Shown in pieces: positions 49,319 to 52,053 of a DNA stretch of 64,000 nt (positions within the stretch are counted from its first letter, which is position 1; each line of letters opens with the position of its first letter). The stretch lies in NCBI RefSeq assembly GCF_002261185.1, contig NZ_NEVQ01000013.1, positions 682,001 through 746,000 on the forward strand. The letters are read 5' to 3'. Origin of the DNA: Bordetella genomosp. 4 (lineage in GTDB: Bacteria > Pseudomonadota > Gammaproteobacteria > Burkholderiales > Burkholderiaceae_B). The notes under the pieces were generated by a model. It had not been told where the DNA came from and made no database searches. It saw nothing but the letters and a program-made list of their open reading frames with translations. The position numbers were made by a program, and so were the translations under genes.

Positions 49319-50539
49319 TTAAGCGCCCGGCCCGCCCGTGCCGAACAACTCGGCATGGATGCGCTCCGGCGCCACGCCCAGCGAGGTCAACGCTTGACGT
49401 TGCGCACTCATAAAGGGCAAAGGACCGCACAAGTAGTAATCCGCGTCCGGCAACACAGCGACATCGCGAATCGCCTCCAGGTTCATACGGCCTGCGTAGT
49501 CATAATCCTGGCCTTGTTGATCGTCCGGCGAGACGGTTTCGTAATAGACCACTTTACGCACATTGGGCCGCGAATTCGCAATGTCGTTCACATGCGATTT
49601 CATGGCATGCACCGAACGGTCGCGGCAAGCATGTACGAATCGAATCTGACGGCCGTCGTCGCGTGCCACCAGATGATTCAGCATCGATACCATGGGCGTC
49701 AAACCTACGCCGCCGCTCAACAGCACGACTGGCGCGGCGCCTTTATCGTTCAAGGTGAACTCGCCTTGCGGGGGAGCCAGGTCCACCACGTCGCCCTCTT
49801 TTACGTTGGCGTGCAAAACATTGGACACGCTGCCGGCTGGCGTATTGTCAGTGCCATCCTCGCGTTTGACCGAAATGCGCAGACGGCCTTTGCCTGGCGC
49901 ATCCGACAGGCTGTACTGACGGGGCTGCATGATGCCTAATTGAGGCACATAGACGCGCAGGGAAATGTATTGCCCGGGCAGATAATCTGGTACAGGGCCG
50001 CCATCTGCGGGGACCAGGTAGAACGACGTGATTTCGGCGCTTTCGGGGACTTTGCTGTCCACGCGGAAACCACGCCAGCCAGTCCAACCGCCGTCCTTGC
50101 CAGCGGACTCTGCGTAAAGTTTGGCTTCCTCGGCGATGAGCAGATCGGCCAACTGACCATAAGCCGCAGCCCAGGCCGCAATCAACTCATCGGTCGCGGC
50201 CTCTTCGCCCAGGACCTCTCTGATCGAGGCCAGCAAATGCTTGCCGACAATCGCGTAATGCTCAGGCCGTATCCCCAAACTGACGTGCTTGTGCACGATG
50301 CGGGTCACTACCGGCATCAACACCGAAGGATCATCAATATGCTCTGCATACGCGGCAACGGCCGCGGCCAAGGCCTGCTGCTGTTGCCCGCCGTCCTGGT
50401 GGCCTTGATTGAACACCTGCTTCAGTTCCGGGTTGTGGCGGAACATGCGGGCATAAAAGTGACAGGTGAGCGTTTCACCGTGGACTTTCAATACCGGCGC
50501 AGTGGCTTTTACCAGATCGCGGACTTCCTGGCTCAACAT
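49319..50539 (-). CDS. hmp: Flavohemoglobin, nitric oxide dioxygenase
   Basis: A 406-residue globin-FAD/NAD reductase fusion that oxidises nitric oxide to nitrate. The globin part has Tyr29 (CHFYARMF) and proximal His85 (IVHKHVSLGIRPEHY); the FAD motif is RQYSLSDAPG, the NAD-binding part VVLLSGGVGLTPMVSM. An AAGGAG ribosome site precedes the ATG. A dyad over a perfect TATAAT lies upstream and nsrR follows. Confidence 0.95.
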   Translation of the reverse strand: MLSQEVRDLVKATAPVLKVHGETLTCHFYARMFRHNPELKQVFNQGHQDGGQQQQALAAAVAAYAEHIDDPSVLMPVVTRIVHKHVSLGIRPEHYAIVGKHLLASIREVLGEEAATDELIAAWAAAYGQLADLLIAEEAKLYAESAGKDGGWTGWRGFRVDSKVPESAEITSFYLVPADGGPVPDYLPGQYISLRVYVPQLGIMQPRQYSLSDAPGKGRLRISVKREDGTDNTPAGSVSNVLHANVKEGDVVDLAPPQGEFTLNDKGAAPVVLLSGGVGLTPMVSMLNHLVARDDGRQIRFVHACRDRSVHAMKSHVNDIANSRPNVRKVVYYETVSPDDQQGQDYDYAGRMNLEAIRDVAVLPDADYYLCGPLPFMSAQRQALTSLGVAPERIHAELFGTGGPGA

Positions 50540-50596: not shown

Positions 50597-50648
50597 AGTT
50601 TGCCTATGGATAAGGTGGGTATGAAGTGAGGTAGGAGTTCTATTGGTC

Positions 50649-50992
50649 GTCGAGCCGAGGCAATCGGCCCGGCCGGGCTTCACAAAGTCGGTCCGGCGCG
50701 CGGGCGCCGGACACCGTGTTCGCTCACCTCGTCCGGCCCGTTCGGGCCTACCTACGGTGTCCGCTCCACTCGACTTTGAGGCGCCCGGCCGGGCCGATTG
50801 CCTCGGCTCGACTGGCAGCAATTAGAGCTCTCTGCACCGCTGGCACGACTTTCTTGCTTGGCATTTTTCTGCAGCCGCGTTGGTAGAGAGAAAGATCTTG
50901 CAGTGCTGCTTTCGGCAGGCGCCCAGCGCGCCTACCTCAAGCGATCGGTCCGGGCATGCGACGGGGTGGCGTGGTGGCTGATTGGAAGATCT
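50649..50992 (+). repeat. Structured non-coding element, copy A
   Basis: First copy of an element that aligns without gaps for 344 bp with an inverted copy at 51168-51511. It consists of a 164-bp hairpin element (50649-50812: arms 50649-50678 and 50783-50812, perfect complements; inner stem 50684-50689/50772-50777; 82-nt core 50690-50771), then a more conserved linker (to 50909), a hairpin (about 50910-50940), and a tail with shared GCATGC and AAGATCT. No convincing protein is encoded; the small frames across it are translations of the repeat. The linker has the shared blocks GCTTGGCATT and GAGAAAGATCTTGCAG. Confidence 0.88.
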
Positions 50993-51167
50993 GCTTGGCA
51001 GCGAGTGAGGCTTGCGGCGATGATGCGTAGGCTACTTTTTTTCGGCAGCGTATCCGTAGCATGCTCGTGCTCTGGATCACGAGTTCATTGTCGCAGACAT
51101 GATTTGCGCTCACCATGATGGCGCTAGAACGAGTGCCATGCGTGGCATTACGTCAATGTGACTCGAG
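50993..51167. other. Unique spacer between the two inverted element copies
   Basis: About 175 bp that do not align between the two copies. I see no gene, and no promoter I would defend. A T-run (TTTTTTT near 51036-51042) and local dyads such as CTCGTG...CACGAG near 51065-51082 are present without a clear reading. Confidence 0.5.
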
Positions 51168-51511
51168 AGATCTTTCGCCGGTAACGGTGCCACAGCCTCT
51201 GCATGCAGATCCCGAACGCGATGACCGGGTGTGCAGGGCACCCGGTCATCGCAGCCCTGCAAGATCTTTCTCTTCACCCAGACTGATGCAGAAGAATGCC
51301 AAGCAAAAAACCCGTGCCAGCGATGTGATGAGCTTGAGTTACTGCGAGTCGATGCGGGGCAGTGGCTGCGTGGGGGCGCCTCGTTGGCGAGCGGAGCGGA
51401 CACCGTAGGTAGGCCCGAACGGGCCGGACGAGGTGAGCGAACGCGGTGTCCGGCGCCCGCGCGCCGGACCGCCAACGTGAAGCCCCCACGCAGCCACTGC
51501 CCCGCATCGAC
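51168..51511 (-). repeat. Structured non-coding element, copy B (inverted)
   Basis: Second copy, in opposite orientation to the one at 50649-50992 and aligning to it base for base. Its 164-bp hairpin element is 51348-51511 with arms 51348-51377 and 51482-51511, again perfect complements, but 11 of 30 arm positions and 4 of 6 inner-stem positions differ from the other copy, each change being matched on the paired strand. The second hairpin (about 51220-51250) has 12 paired positions in the same register as copy A. The end nearest the GatB/YqeY gene is 77 bp from its start codon. Confidence 0.88.
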
Positions 51512-51588
51512 GTCCAATAGCACTAACCCCCACCCTCATCCGGTTTACACTTGACTCTCCCCCTCCGTATCTAAACAAAGGTTTCCCC

Positions 51589-52053
51589 ATGAGCACCACT
51601 ACGCTCAAAACCCGCCTGACCGACGCCGTCAAAGAAGCCATGCGCGCCCGTGACGCCCAGCGCTTGTCCACGCTACGTTTCCTCGTTGCCGCGGTCAAAC
51701 AGAAAGAAGTCGACGAACGCAGAGAACTGAGCGACGCAGACATCACGGCGATCATCGAAAAGCAGGTAAAGCAACGCCGCGAATCGATTGCCGCGTTCGA
51801 GCAAGCCGGCCGATTGGAAACCGCGGCACAGGAAACTGCCGAGCTGGACGTGCTGCGTGAATTCCTACCGCAAGCAGCCTCCCCCGAGGAAATCGCTGCA
51901 GCAGTAGACGCAGCCCTCGCAGAAGTCGCGGCACAGGGCCTGAGCGGCGGTGCTGCCATGGGCAAGGTCATGGCGATTCTCAAGCCCGCATTAGCTGGCA
52001 AAGCCGATATGTCCGAAGTATCGCAACAGGTCAAACAGCGCCTGAACGGCTGA
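51589..52053 (+). CDS. GatB/YqeY domain-containing protein
   Basis: A 154-residue YqeY-like protein, related to the tRNA-binding tail of GatB. It opens LKTRLTDAVKEAMRARDAQRLSTLRFLVAAVKQKEVD and has ELDVLREFLPQAASPEEI. It probably affects tRNA-dependent amidation or tRNA stability; the role is unproven. AAAGG precedes the ATG. In many betaproteobacteria it lies next to rpsU, but no rpsU is seen here; upstream is the repeat-rich interval. Confidence 0.88.
   Translation: MSTTTLKTRLTDAVKEAMRARDAQRLSTLRFLVAAVKQKEVDERRELSDADITAIIEKQVKQRRESIAAFEQAGRLETAAQETAELDVLREFLPQAASPEEIAAAVDAALAEVAAQGLSGGAAMGKVMAILKPALAGKADMSEVSQQVKQRLNG

What the first reader, a model, noticed from the sequence alone, without database searches (positions are those of the whole stretch)
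50649..51511. Pair of inverted 344-bp non-coding elements whose 30-bp hairpin arms covary completely
The copies 50649-50992 and 51168-51511 (inverted) align without one gap over 344 bp. In the first 164 bp the arms are exact complements in both copies, yet 11 of 30 arm positions and 4 of 6 inner-stem positions (AAAGTC/GACTTT against GTTGGC/GCCAAC) differ between copies; all 15 changes are compensated by the partner strand. The unpaired spacers TTCAC and GAGGC are identical and the 82-nt core differs at 2 positions. This pattern indicates a structure that is kept while its sequence changes. Selection for an RNA or cruciform is one explanation; template-switch correction of imperfect palindromes is another. 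I do not know a named family with this layout, and cannot search for one.
Basis: seen in the sequence. Interest (0 to 1): 0.85.

Follow-up and report, generated by a model that had tools for sequence, protein, structure and literature searches.

The report
Mobile twin element with RNA-like hairpins
This is one copy of a non-coding mobile element of about 0.9 kilobases, repeated dozens of times in this Bordetella-like genome and present in related genera, whose two ends each keep a branched RNA-like fold while their letters change in matched pairs.

Summary
The two 344-bp blocks are the halves of one gene-less element of about 0.9 kb. From fetched loci this genome has at least 37 left and 25 right halves; the hmp-yqeY site is empty in seven related genomes, so it spreads. 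Read outward, each half has a hairpin with variable stem (H2), a linker, a three-way-junction unit (U) and a C-rich end. A model of U matches 31 of 161 family genomes, 12 of 43 genera. In 70 distinct units, 33 of 36 pairs change on both sides and 95.8% of cells pair. In one orthologous element 8 of 72 pairs changed on both sides between two species, all kept. Wobbles favour the outward strand (51 G.U, 13 A.C), hinting at RNA. No target duplication was seen, no Rfam family reached threshold, and Y1 transposases, reverse transcriptases and one IS256 clade do not track it. In one relative an IS256-family IS lies inside the element at 10 of 10 loci. Transcript and mobilising enzyme remain unknown.

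The parts
50624..51537 (.). whole twin element (outer limits approximate)
   Evidence: tails of 37 left and 25 right halves are alike for about 25 nt beyond the outer arms, then diverge; site empty in seven related genomes
50624..50992 (-). left half (type I, A arm), read outward on the minus strand
50649..50812 (-). left U unit: P1 30-bp arms, internal loop, P2, P3 and P4 around a junction
50909..50941 (-). left H2 hairpin, imperfect in this copy
   Evidence: sequence; not found as a perfect hairpin
50942..51217 (.). variable centre
   Evidence: differs between types I and II and between genera
51168..51537 (+). right half (type I, B arm), read outward on the plus strand
51218..51252 (+). right H2 hairpin: 14-bp perfect stem, loop TGCAGGG
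51348..51511 (+). right U unit

Best explanation
A non-autonomous mobile element with two divergent structured ends. Shown: it is dispersed and inserted, the complete copies in this genome carry no convincing gene, and each half keeps a fold (H2, linker, three-way-junction U) through compensatory change. Suggested by the data: the strand under selection is the one read from the centre outward, and its pairing tolerates G.U, as RNA does. Inferred: each half is transcribed outward, the folded RNA or RNA-protein complex marks the end of the element, and an unidentified enzyme acting in trans copies or moves the twin as a unit into intergenic sites, mostly between convergent genes where it does least harm.
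For: Empty site in seven related genomes. At least 37 left and 25 right halves. Fixed left-right type pairs in 16 of 16 readable complete copies. Covariation: A1 219 both-side cells against 62 in shuffles; A2 565 against 144; 8 of 72 pairs changed on both sides in one orthologous element. Strand: 14 G.U against 3 A.C outward in 30 arm pairs, 51 against 13 in A2, 6 of 7 one-sided changes in the orthologous pair involve G.U; RNA folding stronger outward in 69 of 70. Where two units were found in a fetched locus of another genus they were divergent, 18 of 18 (several loci were fetched because a pair had been seen). Neighbouring gene points toward the element in 49 of 59 flanks.
Against: No transcript data. 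Only two promoter-like sites in the region, one of them (50995-51024, plus strand) in the centre, and no terminator-like site. Shuffled sequences also fold better outward (-4.1 against -8.2 kcal/mol observed), and related units are not independent. A2 was fitted to the model and holds 68 G.A or A.G cells, more than its G.U cells. C-to-T bias on one strand could mimic the wobble lean. No enzyme family tested tracks the element.
Confidence: 0.45

Rival explanations
1. The fold acts as single-stranded DNA or a cruciform: a recombinase or transposase recognises the folded outward strand at each end, as integron and HUH enzymes recognise folded sites (recalled), and no RNA is needed.
For: Arms are almost wholly Watson-Crick (879 of 900 cells). 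A mismatched internal loop breaks the symmetry of the hairpin and could tell the strands apart. No target duplication.
Against: No Y1_Tnp match in this genome or in G015, G103, G003, G005, G047; integrases and other enzymes were not tested. G.U lean on the outward strand, although G.T in DNA is also better tolerated than A.C (recalled).
Confidence: 0.27
2. A host-serving element: a barrier or mRNA 3'-end structure between convergent genes, like BIMEs.
For: 49 of 59 flanking genes point toward it.
Against: Empty at the same site in seven relatives; the window copy lies between divergent genes; G.U lean is on the strand antisense to the converging genes; insertion where promoters are absent is expected of any mobile element.
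Confidence: 0.13
3. Template-switch correction of palindromes alone, without selection on structure.
For: 56 of 69 units have perfect arms; both-side changes in an orthologous pair could arise by correction.
Against: The internal loop GCCTC/GTGAA stays unpaired beside perfect arms in the units of this genus (the words were part of the search pattern, variants were allowed); three separate helices of a junction covary; one-sided changes lean to G.U.
Confidence: 0.08
4. A MITE-like derivative mobilised by IS256-family (Mutator) transposases.
For: IS256-family insertions or remnants lie in elements of G047, G005, G003 and G080; the clade occurs in 10 of 31 carriers against 19 of 130 others.
Against: The IS has its own ends and an 8-bp duplication at 11 of 11 copies in G047, so it is a later insertion; no related transposase at E 1e-30 in this genome; the twin itself shows no duplication.
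Confidence: 0.04

Closest known systems
REP / BIME / REPIN repeats with RAYT transposases, and TIR families of TIRtrons (PMC3733652, passages read)
   Same: dispersed, intergenic, palindromic, gene-less, often inverted pairs, thought to be mobilised in trans
   Different: REPs are 20-40 bp; here each unit is a 152-164 nt branched fold with a second hairpin; no Y1 transposase found in this genome
MITEs
   Same: terminal inverted halves, no gene, many copies, empty sites
   Different: no target duplication seen in 17 complete copies; halves of about 370 bp with a conserved branched fold; no parent transposon found
Bor-2 of Bordetella bronchiseptica (PMC2267715, passages)
   Same: 167-nt model, 17(6) sequences, intergenic, structure predicted
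BRE, betaproteobacterial repeat element (PMC3110155, section 14 and passages)
   Same: intergenic repeat of Bordetella, partly transcribed
   Different: 75-91 bp, often in tandem arrays
IS110 bridge-RNA elements (PMC11208160, search listing only; otherwise recalled)
   Same: structured RNA tied to the end of a mobile element
   Different: those carry a recombinase gene; here no gene, and two inverted units

Membership tests
REP/REPIN with RAYT | palindrome of 20-40 bp | tested here: not met
   units of 152-164 nt; size of REPs from PMC3733652
REP/REPIN with RAYT | GTAG or CGTC tag at one end | tested here: inconclusive
   CGTC occurs at the outer foot of the arm in many copies, but no test against chance was made
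REP/REPIN with RAYT | Y1 (tyrosine) transposase in the genome | tested here: not met
   PF01797: none at E 1e-5 in G000; 8 of 31 carriers and 27 of 130 others have one
MITE | inverted terminal repeats without a gene | tested here: met
MITE | target site duplication | tested here: not met
   no repeat of 5-9 nt at a shared offset in 17 copies; the exact ends are uncertain, so a duplication at varying offsets could be missed
MITE | parent transposon with matching ends | tested here: inconclusive
   none seen in plasmids or phages nor in fetched loci; not sought systematically
IS256-derived element | 8-bp duplication and related transposase in the genome | tested here: not met
Retro-element | reverse transcriptase present in carriers | tested here: not met
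   PF00078 at E 1e-10 in 16 of 31 carriers (one match in G000) and 47 of 130 others; absent from G015, G081, G103, G002, G003, G005
Any Rfam family | score at or above the gathering threshold | tested here: not met
   0 matches in the window; below threshold three hits, the best a plant-type microRNA precursor model at E 0.0077
Bor-2 | sequence match to the published model | not testable with these tools
   model sequence not held
BRE | 75-91 bp repeat, often tandem | tested here: not met
   size and layout differ; sequences not compared

The most novel reading that the evidence does not exclude
A new kind of mobile element whose ends are two divergently transcribed, branched non-coding RNAs and whose spread depends on those RNAs: a gene-less, RNA-marked twin element of this bacterial family, which is at the same time a homing site for an IS256-family insertion sequence.
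Probability: 0.27. Interest if true: 0.88.

Novelty: new variant of a known kind. Interest (0 to 1): 0.72.

Why it matters
Strong covariation across genera in a dispersed, gene-less repeat makes it a tractable system to ask how such elements spread without an obvious transposase, whether a structured RNA or folded strand can mark transposon ends, and why an IS256-family IS homes to it. Many contigs of this genome also begin or end inside copies, so the element breaks assemblies.

Tried and rejected
RAYT/REP reading: not supported, no Y1_Tnp match in this genome. Need for a reverse transcriptase: not supported, several carriers have none. IS256 as driver: not supported for this genome; in G047 it is an inserter. 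Target duplications: none at a shared offset. Rfam: nothing at threshold; three sub-threshold hits taken as chance. Plasmids and phages: no match. First genome contigs pattern too strict, 0 stretches; the second gave 5, four from Bordetella sp. 02P26C-1 and one from a Thermomicrobiales MAG; viral contigs 0. A pseudoknot between the H2 loop (GCAGGGC) and the downstream GCCCTGC fits many copies but not those with loop GCCCGTAG and some others, so it is not claimed. The C-rich tail was first read as a Rho site; since most neighbours point toward the element, antisense composition explains part of it. The split into types I and II intended failed (all 16 fell into one group), so its mean identities are not used; the types were read from the printed sequences. 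Literature searches listed no paper that I recognised as describing the element; most subscription papers are not held and supplements were not read.

Full report
CHECK. Every stated number holds: 344 bp ungapped, arms 11 of 30 different, inner stem 4 of 6, core 2 of 82, spacers identical, arms and stems exact complements in both copies. One search finds the same arms independently. The ORFs listed inside the element overlap the palindromes and each other and look incidental (my judgement). Neighbours are a flavohemoprotein-like gene at 49319-50539 (minus) and a YqeY-like gene at 51589-52053 (plus); these names are my reading of the translations.

WHAT IT IS. The blocks are the two ends of one element. 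A search of the own genome with one unit gave 104 matches, partial ones included. In fetched loci, 37 distinct left halves (14 type I, 23 type II) and 25 right halves (8 and 17) with at least 100 nt of tail were aligned. Many contigs begin or end inside a copy, so these are lower bounds. Seventeen copies have both outer arm ends, 470-871 bp apart. In 16 of the 17 both units could be read: 7 pair a type I left with a type I right unit and 9 a type II left with a type II right unit; the 17th (L105, the 470-bp one) lacks a readable left unit. So the twin behaves as one unit of inheritance.

MOBILITY. The genus search covered nine genomes, the own one included. In seven of the other eight (G152, G103, G151, G123, G141, G081, G053) the hmp-yqeY spacer was aligned and has no element. 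In the eighth, G015, the two genes matched on different contigs, so it is not counted. In the flanks of the 17 complete copies no direct repeat of 5-9 nt recurs at any offset pair within 80 nt.

ANATOMY (outward, centre to end). H2 hairpin: a perfect hairpin in 48 of 62 halves tested, 25 stem strings (some the same stem cut at different lengths) but 9 loops, 91-101 nt from U in all but one, which is at 160; the 14 without one include the left half of the window copy, whose hairpin is imperfect. Then a linker. Unit U: P1 (30 bp), an internal loop GCCTC/GTGAA, P2, and P3 and P4 at a junction. Tail GNCCAATAGNAC or similar, followed by about 12 C-rich bases. The centre varies.

COVARIATION. A1 (29 units of this genus): 99.3% of cells pair, 25 of 36 pairs change on both sides, 219 such cells against 62 in shuffles; slid partners give 32-43% paired. 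The measure 'further pair types' did not exceed shuffles there (370 of 500 reach it). P1 is biased because units were found by requiring paired inner arms; P2-P4 were not selected. A2 (99 model hits in 62 loci, 70 distinct rows, several genera): 95.8% paired, 33 of 36 pairs with both-side change, 565 cells against 144 in shuffles; slid partners at most 42.7% paired and 133 cells. A2 was fitted to the model. A cleaner case: G103 and G151 share the element at one site; flanking windows of 150 columns are 93-97% identical on one side and 87-96% on the other. There, 8 of 72 P1 and P2 pairs changed on both sides and all 8 are Watson-Crick in both species; 7 pairs changed on one side, 6 involving G.U and 1 A.C on the outward strand.

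WHICH STRAND. In 30 distinct arm pairs 879 of 900 cells are Watson-Crick; on the inward strand 14 are A.C, 3 are G.T and 4 are other mismatches, which is 14 G.U and 3 A.C outward. In A2, 51 G.U and 13 A.C; also 68 G.A or A.G. RNA folding is stronger outward in 69 of 70 units, mean difference -8.2 kcal/mol, but mononucleotide shuffles already give -4.1. The lean is consistent but modest, and the units are related.

DISTRIBUTION. Model R1: 31 of 161 genomes of the family, 12 of 43 genera, at E 0.001. Model R2 at E 1e-5: 3 of 250 genomes of the order, all in the same family, and 1 of 370 of the class, the own genome; both used strict filters and scored only 14 and 9 candidates per genome, so weak matches may be lost. 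G015 has the contig lengths of Bordetella sp. 02P26C-1; that the family is Alcaligenaceae is inference. In 25 loci fetched from relatives, 18 have two units and 7 one; all 18 pairs are divergent. Several of these loci were fetched because a pair had been seen.

LOCATION. By a codon-composition gene call of my own, the best gene within 1.5 kb points toward the element in 49 of 59 flanks of this genome. The window copy is an exception. The tail strand is C-rich and G-poor, skew 0.77 at 10-20 nt falling to about 0.1 at 190 nt. A promoter scan gave two sites, one in the centre, and no terminator.

ENZYMES. Y1 transposase: 8 of 31 carriers, 27 of 130 others; none in this genome. Reverse transcriptase: 16 of 31 and 47 of 130; one match in this genome. 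IS256 clade at E 1e-30: 10 of 31 and 19 of 130; none in this genome. None explains the spread; other enzymes were not tested.

IS256 HOMING. In G047 a 1.4-kb IS256-family IS occupies 10 loci, one of them with a second copy nested in the first. All 10 lie between or inside two divergent units, and all 11 copies have 8-bp duplications. Of four copies at 86-87% protein identity in genus g4, one has a unit on each side (L277), one has a unit on one side and, by eye, a cut-off unit on the other (L276), one sits beside weak hits (L278), one ends near a contig end without a hit (L279). No unit was found in the 25 loci of more distant transposases.

HOW IT MIGHT WORK. The best reading is a gene-less mobile element whose ends carry folded outward RNAs or folded single strands read by an unknown enzyme. 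The fold and the insertion are shown; the RNA and the enzyme are inferred. Palindrome correction may add to the perfection of the arms but does not explain the persisting internal loop, the junction or the wobble lean.

KNOWN OR NEW. Rfam has no match at threshold. Bor-2 of B. bronchiseptica, 167 nt, 17(6) sequences, intergenic and structured (PMC2267715, passages), may be the U unit; it could not be compared. BRE (PMC3110155, section 14 and passages) is shorter and often tandem. REP and TIR families (PMC3733652, passages) are linked to tyrosine transposases. PMC1590033 (passages) describes 26-30 bp Bor repeats. The searches listed no paper that I recognised as describing the twin element.

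Noticed in passing
L236-L245 (G047); L276-L279 (g4): An IS256-family IS has all 10 of its loci in G047 inside twin elements, with 8-bp duplications; a relative in genus g4 shows the same habit in part. It looks like homing to the element.
   Followed up: yes
centres of L141, L145, L277: A short palindromic repeat (GGTGTCTGGCACCC-like, inverted pairs) sits in the centre of elements of different genera.
   Followed up: no
P3 of units L001, L006, L007, L008, L013, L017: Nearly identical copies differ by whole P3 blocks (stem and loop together), as if short segments were exchanged between units by gene conversion.
   Followed up: partly
L004, left flank: The outer end motif GGGTTCTATTGGTCG is repeated in tandem outside the element.
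   Followed up: no
G000 contigs C1, C2, C3, C9, C10, C14, C15, C17, C21: Contigs begin or end inside or close to copies of the element, so copy numbers are underestimates.
   Followed up: no
L087, 6633-6667: One exact match of the P4 pattern in a Thermomicrobiales MAG contig; chance, contamination or a distant relative.
   Followed up: no
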